A stretch of DNA of 64,000 nucleotides from Agarophyton chilense (lineage: Eukaryota > Rhodophyta > Florideophyceae > Gracilariales > Gracilariaceae). Positions within the stretch are counted from its first letter, which is position 1. Each line of letters begins with the position of its first letter. The position numbers and the translations under genes are program-made. Shown piece by piece: positions 9,241 through 31,576 of the stretch. Below the pieces are notes generated by a model. It saw nothing but the letters and a program-made list of their open reading frames with translations. It did not search any database and had not been told where the DNA came from. Where the stretch lies: positions 1,116,001 to 1,180,000 of the forward strand of contig JARGXX010000004.1 of the NCBI GenBank assembly GCA_030374765.1. Direction: 5' to 3'.

Positions 9241-9302
9241 AACCATCACTACACTCCTCAATCACCTCACCATCGGCCTACTACACCCACCATGCCTCGC
9301 CT

Positions 9303-9965: not shown

Positions 9966-10167
9966 TCTCTTTCATCCCCCTTGTCCTCCACTTCCTTCTT
10001 CGAAACCTTCCTTTTCCCCTTCCTCGACCTCGGCGTGGGCGTTGGTTCGATCTCCTCTCACGATCACCTCACGCTCGAATCAGAGTCGCGACCGCTCATC
10101 ACTCCACAAACAACAGAACCGTGTCAACACTACGCAAATCCGAAACAACACACAGATCCACAGCTCC

Positions 10168-11269: not shown

Positions 11270-11893
11270 ATGACCTCGACAAAGTATGCCGATGAATCTG
11301 ATGACTTGTACATCAAGAACGGATTGAGTGTGGAGGTCTTGAGAGATTTTATGGGGTACGATGTGGAGCAGCCGTGAAGGGAAGGGGAGCCACAGTATGT
11401 GGATGGAAGTGTGATGCATCTGGCCCGATTGGATGCGTGGATTGCATCTGTGGTAGAGGCATTGGATGAGGATGTGGGTAGAGGAGGGAAGCCCCCGATG
11501 CTGTTTTCGAAACTGTATGCGAAGCATCTGCCGGTTGCTGTGGAGGATGTGTTAAAAACAGCCAGAAGAACGGTGGAAGAGAAGTATAGGGAGGAGCTTG
11601 TGAACCATGATGTGAAAGATGAAGACCCGACTGAAATGCTGGGAAATGAGGAACGTGAAGAGACCGTTCCGTGTTGGATGCCATCGAACCAACTGGTCTA
11701 TCTCGGTGTTCGGTGCGAGGTGTTTTGGGAAGACATGAGGACTTATCTGGGTTATGTATTCTATTGTTATTTGGGACGTTGCATGCCTGAAGAACGTGAG
11801 TTTAGGGATTTGCTAGCAGATGAAAAAAAAAATGTGGGAGGCGAAAGAGGAAGGGGAGGAGAGGGAGGGGGAGGTGGTGGAAGGCGGAAGTGA
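11270..11893 (+). pseudogene. Hypothetical protein, about 207 codons, one in-frame TGA
   Basis: From ATG 11270 the frame reads through one TGA (around 11390) into a long frame with LARLDAWIASVVEALDED, PPMLFSKLYAKHLPV and a Trp/Tyr-rich section (VYLGVRCEVFWEDM). It ends in a low-complexity Gly/Arg/Glu tail. Helix-rich, no signal peptide, no family recognised. It faces the decayed KDZ transposase tail to tail with a gap of about 50 bases, so it may belong to the same element. Confidence 0.4.
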
Positions 11894-11940
11894 ACAAAAT
11901 ATTGGTGATGATTGATATATTTAATATCAGAAGATGGGGG

Positions 11941-14900
11941 TCATTTGCTTAAAGTTGATTCCTTTATAGAGAAACAAGCTCTCGCTTTCGGGTCGCTGTA
12001 GAATCTGTTGATATAGAAGCGATTTTGATGCCACGGGAGGGGCGGGAATAAAGGGAGTGCTGGGTAGTTCTGGCGAACCAGATGGACCGAACTGAGGATG
12101 GCGGAGAACGGAAAGAGACCGAACCAGGGCGCGAAATTGGATCCAGAGCGTGTGATTATGTTTCCAGTGGGGAGAATGGTGTGGTCCTGTTCATCATCTG
12201 TTGCCCAAAGGAGGGTGATGCAGTTCAGGGTTTCATCCACGTGATCGACGGGACCTGTGAGTTCGAAGAAGCGGACGAAGCGTATTCGCGTTCGTCTGGG
12301 TCTTCATCTTTTTTGGGAAAGCGAAGAAGGGCAAGGAGCTTGCAGACCCGGACAGTGGGGAAGTTGCAGCTAGGTGGTGGAGTACGGGAGACGAGAATTT
12401 TAGAGAACTTTGGAAGTTTGAAAGGACCGAAGGCGGAGATGGCAAATATGCGCTGGAAAACGGAAACTGTTGGTTCTCTGAAGCGGATGCAGTTGAGTCT
12501 TTCATCGATGCCTTGCAAGGAAGGGGTGGATCCGCTGTGGATGAAGGCGGAGTTCACGAGGGAGAAGCTAAGGGAGGAGAGAGAAATAAAAGAAGAAGAG
12601 AGTCTGAGAGCTTCGAGGCACAGGTCGTGAAAGGGTGAAATGGCGTCGCGTCAGATTTGGGTGGTGAAAGAGAGGATGGGAGAGGTGAAGATATTTGAGG
12701 GAGAGGCCTTGGAGCAGTTTGGGTTTGCACGGAGGTACTTGTTTGAGGTGATGATATCGCGGTAGAGGATGGGGTTACCGTCGCGGACCATGGCAAGCCT
12801 TCGAGCGCGACGGAAGGAGGAGTTGGAGGAGGAGCAAAGGTGGTGGGGAATCGCGGTTGAGTTTCGGAAGCCTTCTGTGAGTTGGATTGAGTCGACTATT
12901 TCTCTGTGAGCGGTTGAAGTTTTTCGGTATGTGAGTCGATAGTGTTTTTTGAAAAGGAGGTTTGCGTGTTCGTAGATGCCGCCGTCAGTGAATCGAACAC
13001 CTCCTTATAGTTTGATTTCAGCAATTATGTGGTGTAGAATGTGAAACTTGAGTGTTCCAAAGTGTGAAGCTTGGAAAGGGGCGAGGACGGAGACGCAGAG
13101 ATGCTTGAAGTGCTTGATGAGTTCTTGCAGTGCGCAAAGTCGTTGGTCTGTTCATTCTGAGGTGTTGTTGCACTGGAGTGCGATGGTAAAGAGGTCTGCG
13201 TATGACGTGAAGATGGAGGAGATGGGAGCTGTGTCAACTTCACCGCAGAAACGGTCGAAGAAGGCACCTATGAAGGGGAAGACCATGTCGACAGCGCGGT
13301 AGTCTTTTGCCTCGAGCATGCCTTTGATGCCGTCCGTTGTGAAGAAGCCGTTTAGGGATTCGCCCTTTTTGTGTGTGGAGAAGTCGATGTGCAGTTTGGG
13401 TGCAGAGAAATTGGCTTCGATATATGCGAGGATGTTGTTTGCGTGGGTGAGAAGGGTGCTTCGGATGGATTAGAAGGATTTCGAGGAGGCGTTGGCGGAC
13501 GCGAGATTGGTGAAGAGGCTGTCTGACTTCAAGCGTTCGAGTGTTGCCAGTTTGGGGAGTTTGGAGTTACCAAGATGGAATTTTGTGAAGGGGTTCGAAG
13601 CAGAAGATAGAGTAAGGGGTGAGAAATGGGGATATTTTAGGAAGGGGGTATGTTTCGAAGAAAAAGTGGTACGCGGAGAGGGAGTTTGTGTGGAGGAGAG
13701 ATGCTGCTTGGTCTCTGAGAGTTCTTGCAACACGCGGTGGGCGAAGTTGTTCGGCGTCGTTGGCATCCTCGAAAAGAGGGTCGTGTGATGATCTGGTGTA
13801 ACGGGGGTGGGAAGCGGTTCGAGGGGATAGGGAAGTGGAGTGGGGGTTGAGGTCGGAGCGAGGGGTGAGGCATCTGTGACAGGGCTTCGATGGTTTTGTG
13901 CCGTGTAGGATGGCGAGGATCTCTTTCGCTTCTGGGATCTCTGCAGTATAGTTTGCGATGACTGGGCGGTACTCTCGGATGACCTAGTCTTCATCACGGA
14001 AAGGGAAACCCTTGAGGGCGACTGCAGCGAGGGGTTCGAGGATGGTTTGTAGATATTGGATGAGTTCCATTCGAGTGGTGCGGCTGATGGCTGAAGAAAG
14101 AGGGTACCCTTCGATGTAGTCCTCGTCGAATGGGGAGGAAGGGGCGTCGAACGAGGTGGGGAAGTAGCCGAGGAGGATGTAGTTGCGGTAGATGCAATGT
14201 CGGCGAAAGGAGTCTGAAAAGTTGAGGAGGGTGATTTGGAGGGGGTAGGAGGTGATAGAGGAGATATGGAGGGGGGTGGACGACTTGCCTGAGTAGGTCT
14301 GTACGAATCCGATTAAGCATTCCATGCCAGTGATGTCGGTGTTGTGCCAAATAACATCTGGGTCTGGAGAGTGGAGGATGTGGTGTTTGAAGTCCGGGTA
14401 GACAAATGTGCCGAGCTTTGATGCCATGGGATGAGCCAGTGCGGGAGAATCATCTGAAGAACACTGTATGACGGGGTGAAAAAAGGTGTTCGTGCGAGAG
14501 GCGTAGCGGAGTTGCTGGAAAAGGACATGGACGGGGTTTTTGAGGTAGAGAGTTGCAGTGATGTTCGAGGTATTGTGACGAACGGTTGTGGATTTGAAGC
14601 CAATGGAGCCGACAGTGCCCTCGAATAGTTTGGAATGAAGTTGAAGGCAGTGGGAGACGGAGTTTATCTGTTGGATAAGTGTTTGGGAGTAGTCGGGGTT
14701 CTTGAGGAGGTTGATGAGTTCTTCGGCTCCGCGTTTGCCGAGCTTCGTGGCGATGGATGATATGTAGGAGACGATCGGATGGGGCTTGACGGATGGGCGA
14801 GGGCTGGGAGAAGGGGAGCGAAGAGAATCGCGGAGAATGTGGGCGGCGTCTGCGGAGCATATGGCAAGAGTGAGCTGGCTGGAATGGTAGTCGTCGTCTT

Positions 14901-15276
14901 CTACCAGTGGAACATTGTCGGAAAGGCGGTTTGAGATGCGGACGGAATGGCTGTCTGCGGTCTGGACGCGTGGGCGCTTGGTGCGCGGTGGGAATAGAGT
15001 GCCATCCTTGGGGGTAGTGGCGAGGAAGGGGTTGCGGGTGGTGCGGTAGTGACACTGGCGCTGGTTTTGGATAAGGGAGGTGTTTCCTTTTGTCTGGAAG
15101 GAGCACCTTGGGAAGCGACAAAGGTGCATGGTGTGGAGGGTGCCTGCGCGCGATCTCGTAATGTAAGTCGGGGAGGTGAGAAAGTCGTAGGACGAGGTGG
15201 GAGGCGGACAATATATATAGGCTGGAGGTACTGAAGATGCAGGACGAGGACGGTGGGGAAAGTTTAAACTTATCAC
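11941..15276 (-). pseudogene. Plavaka/KDZ-type DNA transposase, decayed
   Basis: The motif order follows this transposase family. A C2H2-like cluster comes first (MHLCRFPRCSF, later H), then FFHPVIQCSSDDS, then YPLQITLLNFSDSFRR and YILLGYFP. After an in-frame TAG at 13984-13986 the same frame continues with YRPVIANYTAEIPEAKEIL and KPCHRCL, then IFCFEPLHK. A shift near 13583 leads to NSKLPKLATLERLKSD, MLEAKDYRAVDMVFPF and LKFHILHHIIAEIKLYGG. A second shift returns to the first frame for FVRFFELTGPVDHVDETLNC and the end at 11941. These elements are best known from fungi. There are at least two frameshifts and several stops, so the gene is dead. A Met at about 15130, just before the Zn cluster, is an alternative start. 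Confidence 0.65.
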
Positions 15277-15591
15277 GTGTAGTCATCAAGGTCAAGTGAT
15301 GCACCAGAGATACCCGCAAGTCGAGCGGCACGACAGACACGGCGCGTGTGTGGCTTGGAAAGTGGTTTGGAATGAAAATTTGAAAGTTGTATAATTTTAA
15401 AGCGGCGGCGTGTACTTGTGTTAATTGAGAGTGAAGTGGTTTAGATTTGCTGGAGACCAGATGAGCGTTAGTGGGATCTTGGGATCCTGTGATATGATGG
15501 TGGCAGGATTTGCTGGACCTTCTTCCTTTTCTAGGTGCGTGACAAGCGGTATTGTCCACGTTTCGGCGTGCGTTTCACAAGTGGTGACTCG

Positions 15592-15870
15592 GTTTCTGTT
15601 CATGCGCGAGGGGACGAAGCTCGAATGGAGGGCTAGGTGATGGAATGAGGTGGAGGTGGGGGGGGGGAGTGACGGGGGTAAGCAGCTTGCTATTGGGACG
15701 TACATGGTCTATGTTGATCTAGAGCCTTGAAACTGTTTCTGGTCATGCGCGAGCGGGCGGAGTGCGAGGGGAGCGATTGGTGATGAAACGTGGGGTGGGG
15801 GTGAGGGGGTGAGTCGGTTGCGATTTGGAGGTACGCAGCGCGCTACGTTGACCTGGTGTGTTGGGTCTCC
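15592..15870. repeat. Direct tandem repeat, 143-base period
   Basis: GTTTCTG-TCATGCGCGAG begins at 15592 and again at 15735, followed in both copies by G-rich runs and a (C/G)TACGTTGA/CTATGTTGA end. The two copies have diverged clearly. No coding function seen. Confidence 0.55.
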
Positions 15871-15916
15871 TTCTGGTTCTGGTCCATGTTATGCTAACAT
15901 GGGAAACCTATTTCAG

Positions 15917-17717
15917 CGCCCCTCATGATGATGAACATGTGAGTTTGCTATATTTTCTGCTCTGCAATCTGGACGGAGACCTGACATGTTTTCGGCTGTG
16001 GTTGCAAAGCGACAGAAATGAGGTGTTAGGGGAGCAGGAGTCGTTGAGGTAATGGTGAGTGCAAGTGCTAATGGTGTCTCTTATTGGTCTAGGAAGGCGA
16101 TCTGGCAAGTTCTTGTTTGCTGCTGCGAAGCGACGGAGAGGAAAGATTGGGTGGGGAGGAGAACCTCCTTGAAGGAAGTGGATCAAGCAAGGTGCTTAAG
16201 AGGTGAATGCTTCGCTGAAATAATTGGTTTCGAATACTGACGGAGATCTGACTTGTATTTGTTTATTGTTACGACAGGGCGGGGGACGTTGCATGAAGGG
16301 GAAATGATGGAAGTGCGGGTAAGTGCGAGTGCTACTGGTGTGTGGTATTGATTTAGGAAGGGGTTCTGAAATGTTATTCTTTGCTGCTGCGAAGCGACAG
16401 AAAGGGACGATTGGCTGAGGAGGGGGACATCTTAGAAGGAATGCTTGAAGCAAGTTGCTTAAGAGTTGAGTGCGTGAATGACGTAATTTGGTTTCGATTT
16501 TTGATGGATATCTGACTTATGTTTGTTTCTTTTTACGACAGTTAATGAATGGGAAATGGTTGCATCACAGGTAAGTGAGAGCTGCAATTGTATCACGTAT
16601 TTGTTAGAAAAGGAGATCTGACTTGCCGTTGTTTGCTGCTGCGAGAGAACAGGGAGGCAAGTGTAGTATCCGCTCTAACTGAGAGAGCAGACCCCTGCGA
16701 CAGCGTTCGGACTGCCGATGGGTCGCTTGGGGCGAAGGAAAAGGGGTGGTAGAGCTACAACACCAACGAGCTGGAAGTGGGGTGTAAGGCCACTACTCGC
16801 CAGCGAGGGCGAACAGTGCAACTGTAAAACGTTGTTGGAACGTAGTGAACAAGACGGCTCGGGAAGTGGTTGGGGGCTGACTATCTATTATAGCTCGTCC
16901 GGATCTCCGGTTAAGGAATCGTAAGCGACGAACAAAATAGTCATGATGCCCATGTTGTCTCCTTTACTTGGAGTCGGCGCTCACCTCTGGTACACTATAT
17001 ACTGTGTTCCAGGGTGAGTGCCCAAATAATACGTAAATAATTCCCAGTGGTCAGCCACTTAGCCAAACCACTGTATGGGTATGGTCCCTAATGGACTTAC
17101 ATCTACAAAGGGTATTAAACCAGCCACGTAGATCGCCACTACATGCGCCGTTGCAAGCCACTCGACTCGTGATACCACGTGTTCCAACAATGTACCCTGC
17201 TTCCTGGCATCCTACGCGGTGTGCCGCTTCTTATCTTAGCACTGAACAGGCCACTCAGTAATGAGTTCCAAACGCGACTTTGCGACAAAGAAACAATCGG
17301 AACGCCGAAGTAGTAGAATACCACAGCAAGATTGGACGAGAGGTGGGATAAGTGGTCTCTATAGAGGCGAGTGTCGTGCTTATGTGGTTTGTGTTTGTTC
17401 TATGACGTAGATCTGACTTTTGTCTGTATATTGATACGAATGCAGAAAAGTGGGAGAAAGACAAGAAGCAGATGTTGGGAAGGGGTAAGTTTGTTTATAT
17501 GGATTGTGGTTGCATGAAGCAAGGAATTGAGTTCGTGTGATTTTGTGATGTTTACCTAATTATGTAGGAATTTATCACTGACGAAGATGAAGCAGGAACG
17601 GTGGTACTGCTTGAAGGGTTCTTGGAGAACGGAACGGTGTTCGCGTCGCGCAAAGCGCAACGCGAAGTGAAGCGCAACGATCGGAGGACGGGATGCAAAG
17701 CGGGTCACCGCATGTGA
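15917..17717 (+). pseudogene. Multi-exon gene made of tandemly repeated mini-exons, interrupted by a solo LTR
   Basis: AG/GT(A/G)AGT borders define short exons: 15917-15938, 16016-16054, 16278-16318, 16542-16570, 17446-17484 and a last exon from 17568 to TGA at 17715. The introns at 16055-16277 and 16319-16541 are both exactly 223 bases and clearly homologous (GTGAGTGCAAGTGCTA / GTAAGTGCGAGTGCTA at the donor, TTACGACAG at the acceptor). The next intron is a third copy, 206 bases once the inserted LTR and its 5-base duplication are removed. Spliced, the last four exons read as an acidic protein with NEWEMVASQ, FITDEDEAGTVVLLEGFLENG. One TGA lies in the 16278 exon, so the gene may be dead or the exon skipped. 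Family unknown; splice sites are inferred from sequence only. Confidence 0.45.
16662..17325 (-). mobile_element. Solo LTR, family A, copy 1
   Basis: A 664-base unit with TGTAG...CTACA ends, nearly identical to the units at 25136-25801 and (inverted) 31861-32575. It is flanked by the exact 5-base duplication GCAAG (16657-16661 and 17326-17330). No internal coding region remains, so it is a solo LTR left by recombination. It sits in an intron copy of the mini-exon gene. The sense strand is minus if TGTAGTATTCTAC is taken as the 5' end. Confidence 0.9.
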
Positions 17718-17753
17718 AATGGGAAGATCTCATTTCACGTGCATCGGTGACCC
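17702..17753. repeat. Imperfect palindrome centred on AGATCT
   Basis: GGGTCACCG...TGAAATG is answered by CATTTCA...CGGTGACCC around AGATCT, with a two-base length difference between the arms. It overlaps the end of the last mini-exon. It may be a foldback element end or a terminator-like hairpin; no further support. Confidence 0.5.
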
Positions 17754-17939
17754 GTTTCGGGTCTCCGTTGCGGGATCGAAGTATCATGCAACGGCCATTA
17801 GGGTCATTAGAGGGCATTAAATTGAATGTACAGTGCATTTGAACCATTCATACTAGCTACGGTACCTGCGCCATATGAATGATCTCGCGCTAGATAACAT
17901 TCAGGATTCCTTTCATTCCCGGTAGAATTTATGGTCTAG

Positions 17940-18152
17940 GAAGAATGAGTATTGAAATATATCTCCCAAGTTTCCTTCCATTCCTGCTAGTGCGCTAGTG
18001 CTAGTTTGGGCGTTTGCTAGTTTTCTACATTCCCCCTAAAATTCACTTGAGCTAGTATTTTTCCGCTGGGTATTCTGGCATCAAAATTCTGCGATCTTTT
18101 GAACGCTAACCATAGACAATCTAGCACACCCAAACTAGAAATCTAGCACCCC
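17940..18152. repeat. CTAG-rich subterminal repeat region, right
   Basis: Dense GCTAGT words (GCTAGTGCGCTAGTGCTAGTTT and others) end with an inverted CTAGAAATCTAGCACCCC block. The reverse complement of that block, GTGCTAGATTTCTAG, recurs at 49192-49206. Together with the left cluster at 8.4-9.2 kb these may be the termini and subterminal repeats of the KDZ-type element. Confidence 0.4.
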
Positions 18153-19686
18153 ATAATAGCATTCCGAAAACACAGACGTAACGCTCGCGCGTGTGCGACT
18201 GAGATTAAAATCCGTTCCCACTGGTTGTGATACACGAAAAACCCAGCATGGGTGTAAACGCGTACTGGGGACGGTTCAAACGGACTCGTCGCCCCACCAC
18301 GTGGATTCGCCACTGTAACTCGGTCCCAATCCACAGAATGGATTACATCCATCAAGTAGAGGAGTTCATTCAAGCTTTCTTGCGATCCAAATGAGACCTA
18401 CAAGTCCAAGTGGCGGATGATAGACCGAGGTAACGGTGGGATGTAGCAAATACGATGGTGTTCGTACACATCCCAGAGAAGATGAAACGCAACGCGAGCT
18501 ACCCACTCCGCCGCCACAAGGGACCAGAAACCCGTATATGAGTCATCAAATACTCGGGAACCGATGTATTAGAGACTCGGTGGAAGCTCCACAAAACACT
18601 CACGAGGGACTTTGACGCGAGTCCACCAGAAGGGAAGACTGAAATATTGGGCTCCCATCGCGTCGTTGCGAATCCGCTCATCTTCCGCATGAGGGTACGT
18701 GATTAGATATTACCTACGGGAGCTGGTCTTCCGTTCAAACCAAATTCAGCGATCGAAACTATACTGTGTCCTGGACCTTCAAAGATACCGGAACTGAGCC
18801 CTTAACAAGGGTCGGCTCCAAAGGAGCATGTCATGGCTCCCCTGTGGACTCCTTGCCTAGTGCAAAGCTTCCGAAACTCTGTTAGTGCGTCACCATATAC
18901 CATCTCCCCGTAGGTTCGGTAGTGCGACACCTCGAGGTCGAAGTTTGATAGAATGTCATGCTCACCGAGAACTCGGTGTGCTCGCTCTTAGGAAAGGTTC
19001 GCCATATCGTCACGAGCTCTGTAAGGCGATGTGTCGCGTTTTCGGTACAGCAGATGAGGTTGAACCGCAATGCGGGAACGCCAGTCGAGTGAGCGCACCA
19101 TGTCTCGAAGAATCCCACCCGGGAGCATGCCGTCAACGGCGAAGGAGTCGATGAAAGCATCGTCGGTAACCGCACTTGGGTGGAACCAGGGCGGACGGGA
19201 ATAGATAAACCTGTCTATCCGGGGATTACGCACCGCGAGTGATTCAAGAGAGATCCATCTCCTGGAATTCACCGTCAACGATATAGCTTGTTCGGGATTT
19301 CACGCGATAGTTTCAATGTCAGGGACCGTCGAAAGTACAGCAGGGCGAAAACCTTGGGCCGTCAAAACAGACTGCTGGAGCCCTTAAGAGTCAAAATACA
19401 GAGGCTGGGGTCCTTGGCCCAGCTGATTCGCTTGAGGGAGCGGTTTGGACTGGAAAACCTCGAAGAAACCGGGGTTCCCCTGTGAAGGATCGCTGGGTGC
19501 CGCGTTGGAAAGGGCCACAAAAGGCGAGGGACACGAGATTGGGTTATTATGAAAGGGATTCATTCCTGTAGAAGGAGGGCGAGTTGGAAAATGAAACCGA
19601 GAATCGGAAGAAAGCTGGAGGGATGTTGCCTAACTAGTCGGAGGTTGCTTGTTTGATACAGAAACCGGCGAGTCGTTGGTCCCCAT
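18143..19686 (-). pseudogene. Chromovirus antisense gene, copy 2 (truncated)
   Basis: A frame starting MGTNDSPVSVSNKQ at 19686 runs with a few stops and shifts. It encodes FIYSRPPWFHPSAV, DGMLPGGI, HYRTYGEMVY, then CFVELPPSL, GFWSLVAAEWV, AFHLLWDVYEHHR and MDVIHSVDWDRV. All of these words align in order with the plus-strand gene at 21686-23606 (APWFHPTAV, RMLPGDI, LYRTQDEIGY, CYTELPPFI, GLWSAFVTEW, AFLLWEVYDHYR, LDVIDQVDWASV). The gene lies just upstream of a polypurine tract and LTR of a plus-oriented element, so it is antisense to that element. The Ser/Asn/Pro-rich N-terminal third is poorly conserved. The 3' end stops at about 18143, where a CTAG-rich boundary begins. Function unknown; no known domain. 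Confidence 0.65.
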
Positions 19687-19755
19687 TTCGAACCTGCTTA
19701 TCTACGCATTGGACGCCGGCGTTCTCCCACTTCTTTAAAGCGGGAATACTTGTCT

Positions 19756-19768
19756 AAGGAGGGGGAGA
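19756..19768 (+). other. Polypurine tract of the truncated plus-strand element
   Basis: AAGGAGGGGGAGA sits immediately before the TGTAGAGC start of the LTR. This is the usual position of the plus-strand primer in LTR retroelements. Confidence 0.65.
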
Positions 19769-20675
19769 TGTAGAGCAATGGAAATCCGATACAGGAGCGC
19801 AAGCTTGACTCATATCAAGAGTCCCCCCGTGAAGGTGACGTGGTAGAAGGTAGGAACGTATCCCTAATTTGGATTGCGTTTGGAGAAGTAATTCCAAAAA
19901 CCTTAATGGGTGGAATTGGTATTTGGCCCTATAGCTAGGTTGTACACGCTGGACTCTTGGAGGATGATGCTGATTGTTGCACCTGCGGGAGGTTCGCTTT
20001 TGGCACACGGACAGTGGGTTAGCCACGTGTGTGGGCTCGGTAGAGTGTGCACCATATTAGTTAATAATATTAGTTAATTATTCAGTAGGACCTACTTAGG
20101 TGAGGTCAACCTCGGCCCGAACCCCACCAAGTAAACCAACCTCAACGGCGTCCTCTTTAGAGAGTTCCGGGCCATGTTCGTAACCGCCTACGATGGTTTA
20201 CCCCTCCGTTAGGAGGGTACCCACGACTTGTTTCCCTACGTTCACCCTTCATGGTCAATCAAGAATTTCTCCGTGTCTTTGTATTGGATTTATGTGACGA
20301 CGGTTCATCTGCCATCCCTGTATAGGGATATTACCGACGCTATTGATTGTCTTCGCTCCGCCTTACGGGCCTGTTACCGCTTGTCGCACGGTCTTTGACT
20401 CGATCTGCGTGTTCCTGCACTGAGGAAGCCCTCGTATCTACGGTCCCTTATTCTCCTCTTTTCTCACTTTTCCTCCCTGGGGTTTCCTTATCATTTGATC
20501 GTCATTCCCTTTTAGTTTCACCTCTGCAGGTTTAGCCATTCACATTCTCCGGTATTACACCCGGATTGCGCCTGCGCTTGGGCACTGGCAGAGGGCACTG
20601 CCCCTGCGTTCATCTCATCAGAGAGCGGGACTCGGAAACCCATAAAAAGTTCACGCTCGCGTGTTTGGCTCTACA
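19769..20675 (+). mobile_element. 3' LTR, family C/D, of a 5'-truncated chromovirus-like element
   Basis: The 907-base unit begins TGTAGAGCAAT and ends GTTTGGCTCTACA. The LTR at 53485-54416 shares these ends (TGTAGAGCAAT, GTTTGGCACTACA) and, in the same order, the inner words CAGCCACGTGTGTGG, CCTACTTAGGTG and CCCTGTATAGGG. A polypurine tract precedes it and the antisense gene lies inside the element. No gag-pol remains upstream, so the element is truncated. Confidence 0.75.
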
Positions 20676-20815
20676 CGACACAGTAATGACGCGTGATGAC
20701 ACTGCAACGGTAGTGGGAGGTCAGAGTCTGTTAACTGCACCTTTCGTATCAGTCGGAGTCTGTCGCGCCCCTGACTTATTCTTCAAACTGCAGGTTGATA
20801 AGAACGGTCCACCAG
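20676..20815 (-). pseudogene. Continuation of the interrupted gag-like gene
   Basis: Read on the minus strand across the chromovirus insertion, the gag-like frame of 33133-33974 continues here (GGPFLSTCSLKNK, then TPTDTKGAVNRL) to a TGA. ACCAG at 20811-20815 is the partner of the ATCAG duplication at 33133-33137. The assignment depends on the insertion model. Confidence 0.45.
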
Positions 20816-21650
20816 TGTGGAGCAAAGCCAGAAGGCCAAGCGAAACGAGGACTTTAGAGATCTTCCCCTAGGGGGGGTAGCACAGCAACGGAGCCTCTCC
20901 GGGAAGGCACAACGAAGTCGCAGCGAAAGTACGGGGCTAACTGGCACGACAAGCGGGGAGAAAAAGGGTAGAAAAGGTTAGGTCCACGCTTATTGGGTCC
21001 ACGGGGTGTAGGTCAGTCCTTCGAGGAGATGGCGAGTCCACGGTATGGGTAGCCACGAGACGGTGAGCCGGAGTGTAGGTACATGACGACGGGAACAGCT
21101 ACCCACCAACAACGGAAAAGGGATACCATGAGAGTGGGGGAAAAGAAAGGGGTGTCACTCAGTAGGGCGAACGGGGCGTAGGGCACGGTAGTCAAGGTAT
21201 ACAAATGGAGACAACTCTATACAGGGGCGAGAACACAAAAAGTAACAAATAACATACGCCCAAGGCCATAGTAGTTCTCTTGAAGACGCGAGATGGGTAA
21301 GTCTACCGGAGGTAACGCGGCCGAACCTCCGAACAGAGTGGCAGCACGCGAAAGCGGAAAAGACTAAGAGCCACAAAACCCGGTTGGGGAAGATTTACTG
21401 AGCGTCAAGGCAAGACCGGCGAGCAACTATATAGTGTAGAATATCATAGTAAACTCCCTACCTTACTAGAAATAATGCAGATAAATTATGTAAATTAACC
21501 ATCAATCGTGGGCGCACACGTGTACACATGGCGGGCACGACCAGTCCGTCAGGCAATGACGCTCCGCTACTAGCGGCAATATTCATGACACCGCGCAAGC
21601 GGTAAAATGCCTCAGTCCTAGGAAACCACGCTTAGGAAGGTTCCACTTCA
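20816..21650 (-). repeat. 3' LTR of the chromovirus
   Basis: Matches the 5' LTR at 31577-33132 along its whole length, with scattered substitutions. It contains CTCTATACAGGG (21215-21226), which on the sense strand is the CCCTGTATAGAG core-promoter-like word shared with the other LTR families in this window. Because the antisense gene starts 35 bases outside this LTR, an antisense promoter is most likely inside it. Confidence 0.85.
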
Positions 21651-21685
21651 TATCCCCCTACTCAAATGCGAGTAAGACATCCGCA

Positions 21686-23606
21686 ATGGCGAGCAAAGCA
21701 GCGGACAACACGCCTATAAGAATATCCGGGTCGACGGTCCTGTCTCTCTTTCAGAGTGTTCAAAGCGCAACAGCGAGACACAACTCTTCTAGCAACCAAA
21801 ACTCTCCAGAGTCGTTCTCCAGCATCTACGCGCCTTTGCGGTTAACTTCTCCAATCCCTCGGCTTCATCCATGGATCCGTCGAGCAATTCCTCCAGGTCG
21901 CCCGTTAATCTCCAATCCGATGGACGACAACAGCAACAACTCCAATCACACCAACAGCACTCCACAGGGGTACTTCTCCGGAGTTCATTCCGTGACACTG
22001 ACGCAGAGCAGAGCTGCGACTCCAGCGCCGGTTCCGGTCGGAAACATGGGTGTCGCTCCTTCGGGAGGTTATCCACAAGTGGCCTGGCCTCCGTCTGACA
22101 TGCTTGTTTGTGCTCAACCCATTTTGCACACATCTATTCTCCGGCTGGCCCCGTGGTTTCATCCGACTGCAGTCTTTAACGAAGCGCTGTTAGAGATGTA
22201 TAACGACGGAAGCAGAATGCTCCCGGGTGATATTCCAGTTCTTGCAACCATTTCGTGAGATTAGCGTAACCGCGTCGCGGTTCCCGTTCATACGATCAGT
22301 CGTCACGGGAGCGGGTCGGTAGCTTCCGCACATGTGGCTCTTGTCCTCCTTGGTCATCAACGGCTTCTCCGGGCTCCTTTCGAGTATCCCATCCCCGATG
22401 GTCTGGGCTCTGATGTCAGGTTGTACCGCACCCAAGATGAAATTGGATATCTCGACCGTCTTGCAGGTTTGGGAACATTCCCGTGAAGAGACAATCCCAT
22501 TGTGCGCTAGGTCACCCTCTGCTGGGTCCGACCGATCATTCCGGCTGAATTCCGCTTCATGCATCTTGGCGATGATCCGGTTTGAGTGCCGAGCGCGATC
22601 CCAATTCGGGTATATAGTCTCGTACCAAAACGTAGAGATCAAACCCATTCGAGCAGCCAACCGACGCGGTCGGTTTGTTCCCATCTCATCTTGGTGGTCG
22701 CATCTCGAATCCTGTCGAGTTTGTTACACCGAGTTACCTCCGTTCATCACGTATTACGGTTCATACCTCCTCGAGGATCCGCAGTCCGGACTTTGGTCCG
22801 CTTTCGTCACCGAGTGGGCTATCCATACTGCGGCTTTCCTCCTCTGGGAGGTTTATGACCACTACCGATTGTGGTTCGTCCCGTTGCGAGTTCGCGCCGG
22901 CATTCGGGCCTTGGATTTGCGCATCCCACTAGGTGGTGAAACCAGCGCTCAAGAGGTGGCGACCATTCTCGATGTCATCGACCAGGTTGACTGGGCCTCA
23001 GTTTCGCCTGCACGGAGTGGAAGTGCAACCAGTGGCCACACGCAGAACCTGTCAGCAGGACGCAGAACTCCGCTCGCGAGTGACTTTTTCTATTTCAACC
23101 CCTGGTGGGGACATGAGATCTCTTCGGAGGAGACTAACGAACTTCGGTTTGCTCCGCGGTATATTACGGAGGGACATCCAACCGGTTTCTTCGAAGCCGA
23201 TGAGTACTACGACGCCTACGACGGTGAGGAACCGATGTTTGATAATGAACCCAATGAAGGGGTTGCGCACACTGAGGCGGTAAATTCCCAAGCTATGGAG
23301 GGACCACACAACCCAGGGAACCCTTTCATGCCCTAAATGGACGTGGATAACCTTGCGTGGGCTGCTCCTGCCGTTGCAGGTGGTGATGAACCTAGGGCTC
23401 CGCCAGTGGTCCTCCCAGATTGGGGTGCCTCCGTTTCAGGCGGGGCAAGTGCCGCCTAGGCGGGTCAGGCAAACGTGATATCCCAGTTCCTCCGCGAGGT
23501 GGTGCTGGGAAGTAACGTTGCCAGTGGTGATGTCGCCGGGATGCGCAAGGCTTTGATTTCTCGTCTTCAAGGTAACCACTCCGGTGGTAGCCACTCCAAT
23601 TCGTAA
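21686..23606 (+). pseudogene. Antisense gene of the chromovirus, copy 1
   Basis: It is encoded opposite to pol, between the chromodomain and the 3' LTR. From ATG 21686 the frame gives a Ser/Asn/Pro-rich N-terminus and then LRLAPWFHPTAVFNEALLE and RMLPGDI. After frame changes (around 22258-22660) it continues as CYTELPPFITYYGSYLLED, GLWSAFVTEWAIHTAAFLLW, EVYDHYRLWFVPLR and LDVIDQVDWASV. An acidic tail (EADEYYDAYDGEEPMFDNE) follows, then a stop at 23334. The same frame goes on from MDVDNLAW to TAA at 23604 with one more stop, possibly a second short gene. The middle is rich in Trp and Tyr, has no signal peptide, and has no domain I know. Copy 2 at 18143-19686 keeps the same motifs in the same order, which shows this strand was under selection. 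Confidence 0.7.
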
Positions 23607-23784: not shown

Positions 23785-24000
23785 CGGTGGGTCGAATATC
23801 TCACATGGGCGTTAAAGATCGTTGCAGGGATCCCTTTACGCGTTAGGCGGTGATATGAAACCACTTTCGAAGGTGGGAGATGCTGAATCGGTTCATCCGA
23901 GTCGGCCTCGGAACCATAACCGTACCAACGGACAAGATACTGAATGTAACCATGCGGATCGTATTACAGCTCTACAATATGGTCGATAACGAACTCCTGC
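23785..24000 (-). pseudogene. Chromodomain at the end of pol
   Basis: The frame reads FVIDHIVEL, a stop (TAA at 23964-23966), then YIQYLVRWYGYGSEADSDEP, IQHLPPSKVVSYHR. This is the chromodomain pattern that defines chromoviruses. The residue equivalent to the Trp of W-EP is Ser here. It follows the integrase C-terminal segment (24496-24844) after a linker. Confidence 0.75.
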
Positions 24001-24495
24001 TGGTAGAATTTCCTGCTTGACGGTGGTGAACTTGACGACGAAGTCAGTTGTGCCACGGTGCCCCGTGCACTGTTGAGTTGAAGGTCTTGTGCGTTGATTG
24101 GTCTATCTCCCGAGCGGGGTGCCGTGCTGTTCCGTGCACGTTCCAGTTGATGGCTGGGAGCGCTCCTTACTGTGGCGTGTTTCGCCTTCTCACGTGAAGG
24201 CTTGCGCAACAGCGTTGCCAGTGAGTTCGTCCGCTTCGGCGTTACAGTACTGCGTACAGCGTGTTCTTTCGAATTTGCGGTACCGTTTTCGCCCAAGTGC
24301 CGTGAAGGTGGGTGGAGTGTATCCCCATGGGCAGCGTTTTTGTTACAGCGCACACCTTTGGAGGGCCTCACTTCACACGGCAACGAGATGATTTCGTCTT
24401 CGACGTCTGAGCTATCCGAAGTGATCGGCTTGTCCTCAACGACACTGTCGGTTTCTACCTTAATATCCTTCTCCCCCTCCTGAGATGGAGCGGTA

Positions 24496-26640
24496 CTATC
24501 GCTCCATCTCAGGACTCCCTAGTAGGGGGAGCGGTAGAGACTCCCAACCGGCGAAGGTAGATATCTCGCGGTGTCGTGAAAAAGGGACCGTTCTGAGTAG
24601 CATCCGACAATAGCGGCAAATCAGAGAGTCCCCGAGTAGGGTGGGGCAAGACAAAAGGCCTTGTAACCACTGAAGTGGGCTGAGCCACTGAAGTTTGTTG
24701 AGGAACACTATTCACAGTTACTTCCAAGGAGGGTGCTGGGGCGGTGACAACGCGGTCGCGGGAGATCTGCTTCTGAGCGTCGGTCATTTCCACAACGATG
24801 GTGTCCTCTTTGACAGAAATAACCTTATGAGGTCCGTCCGTCATGGGCGAGAGTTTGTGCCGTTTCTTTTTGTCAGGATTCTAGTACCCTTTACGGACGA
24901 AGACGTAGTCAGGCAAATTGATCGGTTGCACCGTACCGCGTAGGTGAGAGCTAAAATCATGCTTGTAGACAGCTTGAGCACGAGCCCTTGAATTGCGAGC
25001 AGCTAGAATCAAATTGATCAGCCATTTCTTCTACTCGTGGCGATAATCTTTCACAGATGGGAAGTCAGCCAGCGTAGGCTGAGGTTCTAACGCGACAGGG
25101 GGCGGAGGGCGTGACAAGACTAATTTGAATGGAGTTTTAGTATCCGCTCTAACGGAGAGAGCATACACCTGCGATAGCGTTCGGACTGCCGATGGGTCGC
25201 TTGCGGCGAAGGAAAAGGGGTGGTAGAGTTAAAACACCAGCGAGCTGGAAGGGGGGTGTAAGGCCACTACTCGTCAGCGAGGGTGAACAGTGCAACTGTA
25301 AAACGTTGATGGGACGTAGGTACGAGACGGTTTGGGAAGTGGTTGGGGGCTGACTATCTACTATAGCTCGTCCGGATCTCCTGTTAAGGAATCCTAAGCG
25401 AGGAACAAAATAGTCATGATGCCCATGTTGTCTCCTTTACTTGGAGTCGGCGCTCACCTCTGGTACACCATATACTGTGTGCCAGGGTGAGTGCCCAAAT
25501 AATACGTAAATAATACCCAGAGGTCAGCCACTTAGCCAAACCACTGCATGGGTACGGTCCCTAATGGACGTCTAGCTATAAAGGGTAGTAAAACAGGCCA
25601 CGTGGATCGCCACTACATGCGCCGTTGCAAGCCACTCGACCTTTGACGCCACGTGTTCCACTAAGAAATTCTGCCTCTAGGCATCCTATGCGGTGTGCCG
25701 TTTCATGTCACAATGCTGATGATATCACTCACTTATGAGTTCCAACGGCGACTTCGCGAAAAACCAACCTATCGGATTCCCCTATATAGTAGAATACTAC
25801 AGGAGTCAAACCCGTTACGGTGTACCTGCGTATTGTACGCGAACGTTAAAGCGTCAGTAAACAGATCAACACGTTTGGAGTGATCGGGCACGTAAGAACG
25901 GAGAGATGCGAGTAGCGTTCGGTTAAACCGCTCGACCTGTCCATTACACTGATGGTGGTAGGTCGTTGTGAAGAGATTCTTGATGTCCAGAATCCGACAC
26001 ACTTTTTCGAAGAATCCCAATGCAAATTGCCTTCCTTTCTCGGACAGAAGATGAACCGGCGGGCCGTGGACAAATACCCAATGGGTTACAAAAGCTTGTG
26101 CAACCGTGAAAGCGGATATCTTCCGTAAGGGTACGGTCTGAACCAACTTCGGGAAATGATCCGGGATAGTGAGTAAGAATTTATGTCCAGGCATAGTAGT
26201 GGAGCTCGTCAAAGAAAAGCTTCAACTTCGTTGAGCGTTTGCGTAGTTTCACGCGATTCGTAGCACATTCGGTGCAAAACCGCACTGTTGCGTGGCAGTT
26301 CACAGCCATGGCTGGCCATTAAAGGTTCTTTCGCAAAGTGAGGTATAGCTTCCGGTCACCGGCGTGTCCACCAAGTTTCGCATAGTGCGATAGATGCAGT
26401 ACTCTAGACTGTAGAGTTTGCGGCACCACAACTTGTGGGGATGACTGCACCGTCCAGAAGAAGTATCAAATGTCATTCATCTCGAAAGGGAGTGTTGCAC
26501 CACCCTTAAGCCGGGCGCGTATCTTCGTACAGAAGGGGTCACATTGCTGTTCTTTAACCATCTCTTCCGAGAGATCGTCACAAATACCCGGTGGGGGCTT
26601 CTCAGTTTTGTCAGAGACGAGATACGCGTCCCATTCATCG
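24496..26640 (-). pseudogene. Integrase of the chromovirus, split by a solo LTR
   Basis: An HHCC-type zinc finger appears near 26300-26420 (LHLSHYAKLGGHAGD, later VRFCTEC). The core follows at 25802-26212 with TIPDHFPKL (first Asp), LLSEKGRQFA and NGQVERFNRTL (catalytic Glu). The second catalytic Asp, normally LSDxGxQF, is Glu here. The frame is cut at TQVHRNGFDS by the LTR insertion at 25136-25801. Beyond it, KLVLSRPPPP and VFVRKGY lead to the C-terminal beta-barrel segment GPHKVISVKEDTIVVEMTD. There are also stops and a shift near the insertion. The enzyme would paste the element's DNA into chromatin; this copy cannot. Confidence 0.85.
25136..25801 (-). mobile_element. Solo LTR, family A, copy 2
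   Basis: 666 bases, nearly identical to copy 1 in the same orientation. The exact duplication GGAGT flanks it (25131-25135 and 25802-25806). It splits the integrase core, and removing it with one duplication copy rejoins the two halves of integrase up to a one-base shift. Confidence 0.92.
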
Positions 26641-26714
26641 TCCGATTCGTGGTCTTTAGGCCACGTATCGTGTATTCAATCCGGCTCGTACGGTGCTCGA
26701 TGGCCTAAGACGAA

Positions 26715-28173
26715 TCAAGGGATATCCTCGTCATCGACTGCCAGAGCTTCTCCATTCGTGGGTAACCCTGATAGCGCGTCCGCTTGCATGTTGTGCGTGC
26801 CCTTCTTGTAGATCACTTCGAAGTCATATTCCGCGAGGTGGAGTCTCCAACGCATTAAGCGCCGGACGGTTCCGAGATGGTTCAAAGACATCGTAGGAAA
26901 GAGTGATCCTTGCAAACAGTAAAGTGCACACCCATGAGATTGGGGCGGAGAGTAGAGAGGGCCCACATAACGGCAAGACACTCTTTCTCCGAAAGGGAGT
27001 AGTTGCGTTCGTAGACATTCAGCGAACGTGACCAATACCCAATGGGTTTCTGTTCTACTTCGGGAGTTGTCTGAAAGAGAGCACAACCTACTTGGTAGTC
27101 ACTAGCGTGTCTATTGTGAACAGTAATCTTGGTTTTGGTAACGATAATATCGGTGGTGATGTGACAGCCTCAATAAAGGAATTAAAAGCATCAGTCTGGG
27201 CGGACGTGAAGGGTTCCACTTTAGGTGGTTGACCTTTTTGCACAAGTGCGTTTAAGAGCTCCGCAATGCCCGCGCAGTTAGATATAAATCGTCGGTAGAC
27301 GTTGATCAATCCTAGAAAGAAGCGTAGTTTCTCTTGAGTTGCGGGTTCTATCGCTAGGGTAAGTGATTTCTCTCGGGCCTCCTCGATCATGACCTGTAAA
27401 AGGACGGATAATGTGACCCCGATACTTGACAGTATCTGGGCAGAAATCGCATTTCCCTGACTTGAGTGTTATTCCAGCTTCACGTAAAGTGGTCATACTA
27501 TCCTCGACATGGGTGAGATGGTCATCCAGATTATCAGAGAAAACAATGATATCGTCGAGAGAGACGAGGCATGTACGCCTCTTGAAGCGGGCCAGTAAGA
27601 TATCAAGAGCGCGCTGAAAGGTAGCGGGAGCATTGGTCAAACCAAAAGGCATTTGTTTGAAACGGTAGAGTCCAGAATGACTGACAAAAGCAGTCTTGTA
27701 CTGGTCCTCTTCTCTGATGGGAACTTGCCAGTATCCCCAACTGGTTTCTAAAGCCGTAAAAAGGTAGCAGGGCCGATCGAATCAATGTACTCATCCCTGC
27801 GTGTAATTGGATACACGTCCTAGACGGTTACGTCATTCAAGCGACAGCAGTCGATACAGAAACGCCAGGAACCATCGGGTTTCGGAGCCAGTAAAACTGG
27901 AGATGCCCATGGCCACTGAGACTGTTCGATAACTCCCGGTCGGAGCATTTTATCCAATTGAAACTGTTCCTCTTCACGAGCCTTGGGGCCTGCCCTGTAA
28001 GGGTGTTTAGCAACCGGTCTAGCGTTCAACAACAAGTCTATCCGGTGTTCCATTGTGATAATCTCACCAAGAGAACCATCCCACATTGGGGTAAACACCC
28101 GTAACATGTCACGGAGGCGTTCACGGTGCGACTCCGGCACCTGGCCGAGGTCGAGTTCCTCGAGTTCTTTCAT
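26715..28173 (-). pseudogene. Reverse transcriptase and RNase H of the chromovirus
   Basis: RT motifs run in order: GVIEQSQWPWASPVLLAPKP, DGSWRFCIDCCRLND, YPITRRDEYID, MPFGLTNAPATFQRALD, then CLVSLDDIIVFSD. The last is the active-site box, where the usual Tyr of YLDD is Ser. GHIIRPFTG marks the connection region. RNase H starts near LFTIDT (27130) and ends with RRLMRWRLHLAEYDFEVIYK and ADALSGLP. Stops (one after RLNDVTV near 27820) and several frame changes break the gene. The enzyme would copy the element's RNA to DNA and degrade the RNA. Confidence 0.9.
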
Positions 28174-28178
28174 GGGAT

Positions 28179-29243
28179 CTATCCGGTCATAACTCGTCGG
28201 AACGGGTTCTTCTCTGCTTCGGCAGGTTGCGGGTCCAAAGTATTTGGCGATTGGGTGACCGATTGAATGACCGTGTCCTCCCCCTCCTCAGCGTGAACGA
28301 GACCGAGAACATCGGCAGCAGTCAACTTAGAAGCGACTATAGCGGTGGGGTGAGGAATTACGGACCCAATAACTTGATATTTCACCAGCGATTGCGGCGT
28401 AGAGCCAAGATTGGCAACTAGTACAGTGAACGGTTTGTCCGGCTCAATCTGAGCAACTCCATTCGCTACGGCGAGTTGATACTTATCGTATAACGATGGA
28501 AGGGGTTGAATAACTCGTAAACCGTGTTGACGGGAATTGACACGCACCCAGACCTGGGACTCAGGTGGGATTCGTATCGACGCAGCCACGCGGAGCTTAG
28601 TAGATTCCCGACAAGCGGGTGGGGGTTCCGGCGCCGCAGGTAAGGGCACGAGCTTCTTCGAGGCTCGCCTTAACAGAAGACGGACGATTGGAACCGAAGA
28701 CCCATCTTCGAGTTCGACACGCTTTAAGCTGGGCCTTATCACGTCAACGAATCTGTCGCAATAGTCACATCCCAGTATTACGGGGGCAGTCAGGTCTCCG
28801 CATACGATAAAATCAATCTTCAACATGAAGGAGCCTAAGCGCACGACAAGGTCGATAGTTCCCAGCGTTGACAACGGGTTGTTATTCGCGTCAGCGACGC
28901 CTGGTATTACGCCAAGGCGGATCTGAGACCGCAAGGGAGGATGTATAAGCGACTCCACGATGAAGTTCTGGCCAGCACCTGTGTCTAAGACAGTGAGAAC
29001 TCGCACCAGAAATAGGGTAGATAAGCCAAGATCAGCATACACATTGTAATTGCGCTTGGCCATTACCATGACTGTATCCGGGAATCGGTTATTTTTACTC
29101 CGTTTCCACGGTCGACGCAGAACACCGAAGTGCTCAGAGTCCACGTCTGAGACGGCCTGCTTCCTTGTAAGGATTCTGACCTGGGAGCGAGGCGGGGACG
29201 CCTCGGGCGTCGACAACCTCACTGTCGGGAACGCCTCTCCCAA
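28179..29243 (-). pseudogene. Retropepsin-type protease and linker of the chromovirus
   Basis: TVLDTGAGQNFIVES holds the catalytic D-T-G triad and is followed by the conserved APVILGCDYCDRFVDVI, the ILG(x)DF-like second half of a retropepsin. A long linker follows, ending just before RT, which starts in another frame at 28173. This 354-codon stretch is the longest intact frame left in the element. The protease would cut the Gag-Pol polyprotein. Confidence 0.85.
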
Positions 29244-29260
29244 AGGGGAGACTCCTGTAT

Positions 29261-31405
29261 TCAGATTTCCTGGGTCTGTACTGCCTGGGGTGGGGCCTCA
29301 GAATCCTGAACCACTAGGATGGGGGTGCTAGCAGTGTTGTCCTTAAGAATAGAACGGAGGTTGGTACTCGGCTGGGACGGGCTAAGCAACGCGTTCCGCG
29401 GGTTTGTGTCCCGAAAGATTCCGTGGAAAGTCCGTTTCGCGCAGAGGTTCGATGCGATGGGGACGACCTTTCTCTTCTGAGGGGTCCATGCCTCATAATT
29501 ACCCATCACTTGGACGTATTCTATCAGTGTGAGGATACAGTCCGGGGAAATTTGACCGTGTTAATAGCATAAGTGGCATATGGGTCCAGGGCGTGGGGGG
29601 GACAAAACAGGACGAGCATCCGTGAATTTCACTGCAGGACCGGTATCCTTCCATCCAGGACGACTTTGTAGAGTACTCAAGTTCGTATATGGAATAAGAG
29701 GTCTGTGAACACGAGGCACATCTGCATAAAGCAGGGGTTGCTCCTGAGTCGTGTCATAAGAAGAATCCGTAGTGGACGGGAGTTCTGTTGTCGGAACAGA
29801 ATGGATATCGCTGCGGGCCAATTGAGGTTTATCGTAATCCCTTTTGGGGGTACCCACTCGCGACCAGCGAAAAGGATGGAGAATTCATTTCCGTCATCAA
29901 CGCCTTTGCGGAAAGAGACTTCTGACGAGGGATACGAGCTCGTAGAGCATCGCCTTCTGCTTGCGCGTTTTATACTAACTCCAAGTACGTGGTGCTCTTT
30001 CGGTCTTGTGGATATCGGGCCACCAGTGTACGGATTGCGGGATCCAATCCATCGATGTACATAGTGGAGCGCTCTCCTGCGGAGTACACATTATCACAAC
30101 GGTGGAAAGCCTTATTGAGACGTACAGAGCACTGGGTTTCTGTTTCTCCAGGCTTCTGGTGGGTGTCACGAAGAGCGAGAATAGGCGTCTGAATCGCTTG
30201 ATTAGTGGCGTAGGACCTCAAAAGGTATTTCAAGGCTTGGGGCCAGCACGTGACTCCTCCCTCGGAGGCTCGGGATGAACCTCTTACAGAGTTGTACTGA
30301 TCCTCAGGGAGACCTGGTAGAAAGTACGGGAGCGAAATATAAACCTGACCCTCATTTATACCAAGTATGTCGGATTCCGCAACAAAGCGTGCAAAGAAAT
30401 CCAACACCAAAATGGGGTTATCTCCAGAGAGAATGGTTACGGAGGGAAAGCTGCATACGTTTTATGCAGTCCTTCACCTTACTCGTGCCGCGGGGCGTAC
30501 GATCCATTGAGGAGTCCTCCAACCGATAATATCGATACGAGACCAGCTTCTCGTACGGGGGGTTTGTGCACTTCAGTTCCTTCAAACCAGCGTACCTCTT
30601 TCCCTTCGTACGGGCACGAACCACACCTTGGGTGTCGGACGACGGTTTAGAAGGGGAGGTGTGCCTTCGATGACCGTCGTCAGACGTAAAATCTGATGAG
30701 GTCGACCCTTCCGAATGGTGAGCGTTCTGTGAAGATCTTGAGTAATCCGAGGAATCAGAATCGTAAGTGTCTTGGTTCTTTCGCTTTTGGCGCTGTAATC
30801 CTTCTTCTTGTGCTTCGCTTTGTGCGAGACCTCAATCGCCTCCTCTGGGACTTTATCATCTATCAAAATGGCTTGCTCTAACATCTGCAGAAGGGACCTA
30901 ACACGATGGAATCGGGCTTCAACGTTTTTCACGTAAAGGGCAGGACCACCGAAACTTTCCAACTTTGTGTTGACATCCGCCCATAAAAGACGGAGGTGTT
31001 CGACCAAATCATTCATAGAAGAGCTATCAAACCTGACACGCAGGACTTCAAACTCCTCCACAAAGACATTGCGAACATCGCGCATGTCAGCGAACTGCTT
31101 TAGCAAGTACGCATCATCATCAATATGGAATTCTCTTTCCTGGGGCGTTACGGAATCTGCGGGGACCTGGGTGTCCGCGGCAGAACCTGGTTCGTCACCA
31201 GTGATGGATTCTTCAAGCGACGCCTTCGGCGGTTGATTGCGGGTCTTCGAAGAGCCCTGGCCCTTGCCGTTGGACTTCGAGTTAGCCTTAGGTGGGGGGC
31301 CAGCGAGGGACTTCTTCGGAGAACGGACGCCTACGGCCGGGTCACATCGGAGACGGAAGGGCTCCGCGTTTTGGCGGGTTCGGCATCCGACGGCCGTCGT
31401 GACAT
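29261..31405 (-). pseudogene. Gag of the chromovirus
   Basis: The likely start is MSRRPSDAEPAK at 31405, about 170 bases inside the 5' LTR. A shift near 31320 leads to a basic/acidic region (RSPKKSLAG, REFHIDDDAY). Then comes the capsid-like helical part (FADMRDVRNVFVEEFEVL; later QALKYLLRSY and YIDGLDPAIRTLV). The C-terminus has a zinc-knuckle remnant ICHLCY-stop-HGQISPDC near 29563, where the His of CCHC is Gln. At least two frameshifts and several stops. Gag would form the particle that packages the RNA. Confidence 0.75.
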
Positions 31406-31576
31406 AGTATATCTATTCCACCGGTGCCCGGGTAAATCAAATACTTCCACGAAGTGCTGTCGAACCAAGAAATTGGGAACGAATCTCAAAAGAGAACTGA
31501 CACACGAATGTGGACACCACCTTGTAGACCAAAAACCAAAGATGGACCTAACTCCTTCTAAGTGGGGAGACCACTT

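What the first reader, a model, noticed from the sequence alone, without database searches (positions are those of the whole stretch)
18143..23606. A conserved gene on the antisense strand of two chromovirus-like elements
Two elements in opposite orientation (the one ending at LTR 19769-20675 and the one at 20816-33132) each carry, next to the 3' LTR and opposite to pol, a gene for the same roughly 450-500 residue protein. Shared words in the same order include WFHP-AV, MLPG-I, YRT--E, ELPP----Y-GS, G-WS----EW, AF-LLW-VY-H-R, LDL and DVI--VDW. The DNA has diverged well beyond the LTR pair, yet the protein words persist, which implies selection on the antisense strand. Antisense genes are known in some plant gypsy elements and near the 3' LTR of some retroviruses; this protein has no domain I recognise.
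Basis: partly seen in the sequence, partly recalled or inferred. Interest (0 to 1): 0.85.

Follow-up and report, generated by a model that had tools for sequence, protein, structure and literature searches.

The report
Antisense accessory gene of seaweed retrotransposons
A large group of jumping elements in this red-seaweed genome carries, on the strand opposite to its replication genes, a conserved gene for a protein of unknown function, a layout known from some plant and fungal elements but here with a protein that matches none of the families searched.

Summary
In detail: both elements carry the same gene opposite to pol. It is intact in many other copies (frames of 614-652 codons in the main families; at least 254 gene places, lists capped). 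For one family, 70 of 73 listed RT places have the gene within 8 kb, 72 of 74 pairs on opposite strands; of 62 RT places found with another gypsy family, 2 do. Between families dN/dS is 0.15-0.32 with dS near saturation. Within families the mean is 0.55-0.77; in one pair RT and integrase are also near 1, protease 0.50. Copy A's gene is split by a 9.8-kb probable DNA transposon.

The kind is known: antisense ORFs between pol and 3' LTR occur in Grande, RIRE2, Retand and Boty (PMC7264820). New here are the lineage (red-algal chromoviruses) and a protein for which I found no family, PDB-sequence or Foldseek match, which does not prove a new fold. Most likely it is a soluble accessory factor made from an antisense promoter in the 3' LTR; a nuclear regulatory role is a guess. 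Expression and function are untested.

The parts
7466..7666 (+). element A: chromodomain remnant of pol
   Evidence: tblastn with the f2 integrase ORF (residues 820-886), 45% identity, E 5.7e-12
8031..8383 (-). element A: 3' end of the antisense gene (A-type residues 510-637)
   Evidence: tblastn, two pieces, E 1.1e-5; directly behind the chromodomain as in intact elements
8410..18180 (.). probable DNA transposon inserted in the antisense gene of element A; 38-bp terminal inverted repeats 8410-8447 and 18143-18180, 87% complementary
   Evidence: inverted repeat I1; transposon nature inferred from the ends
18179..19575 (-). element A: 5' and middle part of the antisense gene (A-type residues 62-500), broken
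   Evidence: tblastn, 39% and 52% identity, E 1.2e-98
19769..20675 (+). element A: 3' LTR, TGTAGAGC .. GCTCTACA
   Evidence: sequence; no second copy in the window
20816..21650 (-). element B: 3' LTR
   Evidence: self comparison with 31577-33132, 85-87%
21671..23600 (+). element B: antisense gene, broken (ORF pieces 21686-22258 and 22332-23336)
   Evidence: tblastn with intact f1 protein, 52% and 61%; ORFs
23808..24014 (-). element B: chromodomain
   Evidence: tblastn, 54%, E 3.8e-17
24048..26522 (-). element B: integrase, interrupted by a repeat at 25134-25802
   Evidence: tblastn pieces; repeat
26412..28224 (-). element B: reverse transcriptase and RNase H, broken
   Evidence: tblastn pieces; RVT_1 E 5.7e-17 in ORF 27278-27652
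28248..29297 (-). element B: protease ORF
   Evidence: tblastn, 80%
29777..31540 (-). element B: gag, broken
   Evidence: tblastn pieces
31577..33132 (-). element B: 5' LTR, split by a repeat at about 31861-32575
   Evidence: self comparison

Best explanation
It is a protein-coding accessory gene of a clade of red-algal Ty3/gypsy chromoviruses, placed between pol and the 3' LTR on the antisense strand. Shown: fixed place and strand, long open frames in recently inserted copies, a codon-wise conserved product in four families. Inferred: an antisense promoter inside the 3' LTR makes the mRNA, because the first ATG lies only 32-94 bases from the polypurine tract that marks the LTR edge. The product looks like a soluble protein: disordered N-tail, mostly helical core of about 345 residues, an acidic low-complexity stretch, a C-terminal helix pair. 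I think it most likely works in trans on the element's own expression or integration in the nucleus, as proposed for the antisense proteins of Grande and Retand. The nuclear and regulatory part is the weakest step (about 0.4 by itself; the confidence below is for the coding accessory gene and its antisense expression).
For: 70 of 73 listed f1 RT places with the gene; 61 of 74 pairs at rounded offsets of 4.1-5.2 kb, 72 of 74 on opposite strands. Three young elements with LTR pairs of 98.0-98.8% identity hold an uninterrupted antisense frame of 624-652 codons. dN/dS 0.17-0.32 over 549 codons common to four families. Third codon positions diverge 0.61-0.63 against 0.32-0.40 at positions 1 and 2 in three inter-family pairs. 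In five inter-family pairs only the gene's own frame is free of stops, and it has the lowest pN/pS of the six frames. ATG and polypurine-tract positions. No membrane segment by hydropathy in ten members. Second fold model: core mostly at pLDDT 80-95. 9 of 22 invariant columns are Arg.
Against: No RNA or protein evidence was available. No fold, domain or DNA-binding match supports a nuclear role. dS is near saturation, and in some pairs (f2 and f3 against B) not computable, so the ratios are soft. A simple basic-cluster pattern is absent in 8 of 10 members. No common promoter box: a TATA-like palindrome is shared by the LTRs of f1 and B but was not found in those of f2 and A. A polyadenylation-like AATAAA within 330 bases was found in f1 only. 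One related copy without the gene and one with it deleted were read, so copies without it can exist or spread, perhaps helped by others.
Confidence: 0.8

Rival explanations
1. The antisense RNA, not the protein, is the functional product: it pairs with genomic RNA and limits copy number, and the frame is incidental.
For: An antisense transcript here would be complementary to the 3' part of the genomic RNA; PMC7264820 (parts 1 and 2 of 3 read) raises this for plant elements.
Against: Codon-wise conservation with a stop-free frame in the gene's own frame only points to a translated product; an added RNA role is not excluded.
Confidence: 0.05
2. The protein is structural, or an envelope- or movement-like protein, that happens to be coded on the other strand.
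For: The place next to the 3' LTR is where env-like genes sit in other elements (PMC7264820).
Against: Highest 19-residue hydropathy 0.91-1.54 in ten members, low for a membrane segment; no similarity to the element's gag; my inference that an antisense mRNA is a poor way to make particle proteins in bulk.
Confidence: 0.12
3. An independent mobile element or captured host gene sits nested at the same place.
For: B and A in the window alone could not exclude this.
Against: Same place and strand in four families with roughly parallel divergence: gene identities 36-54%, RT identities 64-75%, although the order is not strict (A against f2 RT is 75%); 2 of 62 control RT places. Genomic context of the database proteins could not be read.
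Confidence: 0.03

Closest known systems
Antisense additional ORFs between pol and 3' LTR (aORF-3R) of maize Grande (gene23), rice RIRE2, PvRetro13
   Same: Place, strand, presence in most copies, unknown function; Grande's protein is reported as nuclear and transcribed from a promoter upstream of the gene (PMC7264820, parts 1 and 2 of 3 read).
   Different: Those plant families belong, as far as I recall, to the Tat lineage without chromodomain; their proteins were not aligned with this one here, but this one has no Pfam match.
Retand antisense ORFs with TRP28 / PF04195
   Same: pol-3' LTR position, antisense, conserved across species, no relatives outside elements reported (PMC11963269: abstract, section 12 and part 1 of section 11 read).
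   Different: Non-chromovirus; TRP28 domain there, not found here.
Boty of Botrytis cinerea
   Same: Antisense additional ORF between pol and 3' LTR outside plants (mention in PMC7264820; one search gave a listing only).
   Different: Its protein was not compared here.
HBZ of HTLV-1 and ASP of HIV-1
   Same: Antisense genes of retroviruses; HTLV has an antisense promoter inside the 3' LTR (PMC7264820; starts of abstracts).
   Different: HBZ is named a bZIP factor in an abstract; no bZIP match here. ASP lies opposite env (recalled); here no pol or chromodomain match overlaps the gene.
5' additional ORFs of plant Tekay chromoviruses
   Same: Extra ORF in chromoviruses, largely disordered protein (PMC11728184, passages).
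   Different: 5' of gag-pol, so another place; not compared in sequence.

Membership tests
Ty3/gypsy chromovirus | protease, RT, RNase H, integrase in this order between LTRs | tested here: met
   order and LTR pair in the C75 element; RVT_1, RT_RNaseH and rve over their cut-offs; the protease match is weak (gag-asp_proteas E 0.019, below cut-off)
Ty3/gypsy chromovirus | chromodomain at the C-terminus of integrase | tested here: met
   PF00385 E 5.2e-7, over its cut-off, in the f2 element; tblastn with the integrase end in 11 of 12 further loci L037-L048
Ty3/gypsy chromovirus | RT groups with chromoviruses in a tree | not tested
   no reference RT set was aligned
Antisense additional ORF (aORF-3R) | lies between pol and 3' LTR, antisense | tested here: met
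Antisense additional ORF (aORF-3R) | present in most copies, with conserved protein | tested here: met
   70 of 73 listed f1 RT places; dN/dS; other families not counted
Antisense additional ORF (aORF-3R) | transcribed in antisense from a promoter of its own | not testable with these tools
   no RNA data held
Retand / Tat lineage | TRP28 domain (PF04195) in the antisense protein | tested here: not met
   no such match at E 1 or better in the antisense proteins scanned nor for L051 at E 0.1
Retand / Tat lineage | non-chromovirus (no chromodomain) | tested here: not met
   chromodomain present
HBZ-like bZIP antisense protein | bZIP domain | tested here: not met
   no such Pfam match
Env-like protein | sense strand, transmembrane segment | tested here: not met
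   antisense; hydropathy below 1.6 in ten members, a crude test

The most novel reading that the evidence does not exclude
A new family of retroelement accessory proteins, perhaps with a fold not seen before, acquired once by the ancestor of a red-algal chromovirus clade and kept through the split of Gracilariopsis, Gracilaria and Agarophyton, works as a trans-acting controller of the element (of its own LTR, of host silencing, or of integration) from the antisense strand: an independent counterpart of HBZ and of the plant antisense proteins.
Probability: 0.35. Interest if true: 0.75.

Novelty: new variant of a known kind. Interest (0 to 1): 0.56.

Why it matters
Antisense genes between pol and the 3' LTR are described for flowering-plant elements and, for example, a fungal one (PMC7264820); what they do is an open question. 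A further case, in red algae and in chromoviruses, with at least 254 gene places, several families, young insertions and measurable selection, makes the question comparative: seemingly unrelated proteins in the same place and strand hint at a shared need. It also matters for annotation: some Gracilariopsis and Gracilaria members stand in public gene sets as plain hypothetical proteins.
Full report
What is there. The window lies in an 80-Mb genome of 135 contigs. The named protein relatives of the gene are from Gracilariopsis chorda, Gracilaria domingensis and Agarophyton chilense, all Gracilariaceae (lineage looked up for A. chilense; the others recalled). An A. chilense fragment is 93% identical to a copy here over 39% of it, about as much as two copies here differ (94%), so the genome is probably from that genus; this is inference. 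Element B (minus strand, 20816-33132) has gag, protease, RT-RNase H, integrase and chromodomain in order and on the plus strand, next to its 3' LTR, the broken antisense gene 21671-23600. Element A (plus strand) ends at LTR 19769-20675. Its antisense gene is at 19575-18179, and its last part, residues 510-637, matches 8383-8031, right behind a chromodomain remnant at 7466-7666. The 9.77 kb between are bounded by 38-bp inverted repeats at 8410-8447 and 18143-18180, probably a DNA transposon inserted in the antisense gene. The finding's start, 18143, is the inner edge of that repeat.

Intact relatives. A search of the genome with the 334-residue piece of B gave 120 scored matches of 1763 candidates, many in frames of 652 codons. 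Searches with an f3 member and with P0006 gave 69 of 1970 and 77 of 1823. Together these are 266 listed and 254 distinct places, a lower bound. Four families are plain: f1 (frame 652 codons, 645 from the first ATG), f2 (624, 614), f3 (639, 622) and A-type (640, 618); B is nearest to f1 (61%). Of the 29 loci L002-L030, which were chosen by score, 15 have one uninterrupted frame of at least 614 codons. In the A-type list 54 of 77 matched stretches (about 473 residues) have no stop; in the f3 list 7 of 69 (most full length).

Young elements. Stretches around three copies show LTR pairs of 98.5%, 98.8% and 98.0% identity (C75, C26 and C71 elements). Pol genes lie on one strand (domains by Pfam in C75 and C71; protein matches in C71; C26 by 97% DNA identity to C75) and the uninterrupted gene on the other, starting next to the 3' LTR. 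In 11 of 12 further loci L037-L048 the integrase end with chromodomain lies just behind the gene on the opposite strand; L038 shows none. In the A-type locus L049 the chromodomain has the same place.

Association. Of 73 RT places of family f1, 70 have a gene match within 8 kb; 72 of 74 RT-gene pairs are on opposite strands and 61 of 74 have rounded offsets of 4.1-5.2 kb. The three without are C71:817502, C80:889679 and C80:904274. As control I took the places found with the RT of L059, a distant gypsy family (33% identical to f1): 73 matched rows, 62 places after dropping 11 second pieces of one place, five of the 62 from a regular array on one contig. Two have a listed gene within 8 kb, one of them in the usual arrangement and not followed up. 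The gene lists are capped and were made with members of the four families, so a strongly diverged gene near control RTs would be missed; L059 itself was read over 7.5 kb and shows none.

Selection. Nei-Gojobori dN/dS over 549 codons common to the four families is 0.17-0.32, with dS 2.0-2.9. On pairwise columns it is 0.15-0.26 between f1, f2 and f3, and 0.25-0.29 for B against f1 with dS about 1.2; f2 and f3 against B are not computable because dS is saturated. Third codon positions diverge 0.61-0.63 and first and second 0.32-0.40 in three inter-family pairs; for B against f1 the values at positions 1, 2 and 3 are 0.35, 0.19 and 0.50. Frame control in five pairs: the gene's frame has no stop and pN/pS 0.46-0.66; four other frames have 1.03-1.48; the opposite frame that shares third positions has 0.58-0.74, with 25-38 of about 548 codons spoilt by stops. 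Within families the mean dN/dS is 0.72 (105 f1 pairs, range 0.31-2.07), 0.77 (3 f2 pairs) and 0.55 (3 f3 pairs). In one f1 pair RT is 1.02, integrase 1.13, protease 0.50 and the gene 0.92. Copies drift after insertion, so a within-family ratio near 1 does not speak against the gene, but neither was selection inside f1 shown. Integrase between families is more constrained (0.04 and 0.11 in the two of six pairs where it could be computed; 132 codons).

The protein. Three database searches gave 4, 8 and 8 proteins, 18 in all (P0001-P0018): nine from named Gracilariaceae, nine from unnamed contigs. No match of weight in Pfam, PHROGs, NCBIfam or PDB sequences (Tried and rejected). The second AlphaFold model, of P0006, has a core at residues 90-435 with block confidence mostly 80-95 and dips to 51-73; it is nearly all helix with a beta hairpin near its end. 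The N-tail and a linker are of low confidence, and a helix pair ends the protein. The last part is net acidic in 9 of 10 members. Nine of 22 invariant columns in alignment A3 are Arg, compatible with nucleic-acid binding but not evidence for it.

Expression. The first ATG lies 32 (f1, f3), 94 (f2) and 78 (A-type) bases behind the start of the C run that is the complement of the polypurine tract; for f3 and A-type the LTR edge is taken from this motif, not from an LTR pair. So, if that ATG is used, the mRNA would start inside or at the edge of the 3' LTR. f1 has an AATAAA 86 bases behind the frame's end; in f2, f3 and A-type none was found within 330 bases. No RNA data were at hand.

Known kinds. 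[quoted passage not shown] PMC11963269 (abstract, section 12 and part 1 of section 11 read) finds TRP28 antisense ORFs in 97% of the young Retand clusters. So this is the same kind of gene in another lineage with a different protein. I found no paper on such a gene in red algae; the searches were made, in an open-access library, of which I saw listings and the starts of abstracts (and three passages of PMC5970526).

Verdict. The gene is real, coding, part of the elements and old within them. That it is an accessory gene expressed from an antisense promoter at the 3' LTR is supported by anatomy and codon conservation (0.8); a nuclear regulatory role is a guess by analogy.

Noticed in passing
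window 8410-18180: 9.77-kb probable DNA transposon with 38-bp terminal inverted repeats and TA at both ends; holds a 430-codon ORF at 13984-15276 (-) without Pfam match at E 0.1 or NCBIfam match. The ORF reminded me of a Plavaka-type transposase, by recall only.
   Followed up: partly
window 16662-17326, 25134-25802, 31861-32575: A repeat of about 670-715 bp in three copies, one inside the integrase of B and one inside its 5' LTR, the latter inverted; 88-91% alike.
   Followed up: no
LTRs of f1 (L031:8397-9189) and B: Shared palindromic box ACTATATAGT; no such TATA box found in the f2 LTR or in LTR A. It could serve as a two-way promoter.
   Followed up: no
U3 edge of the LTRs of f1, f2, f3 and A-type: Short palindrome-like CCCTC/GAGGG (CCCTT/AAGGG in f3) near the LTR start, seen by eye and not tested against chance.
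   Followed up: no
G000:C22:1511117, 1518259, 1528476: Three copies with nearly equal scores in which the gene match spans the same residues; in the one read (L030) the gene lacks its first part and abuts protease sequence.
   Followed up: no
L031:6023-6246: In this f1 copy the chromodomain seems to lie just behind the integrase frame's stop, in another frame and at a GGTAAG (by eye), while in the f2 copy it is in frame.
   Followed up: no
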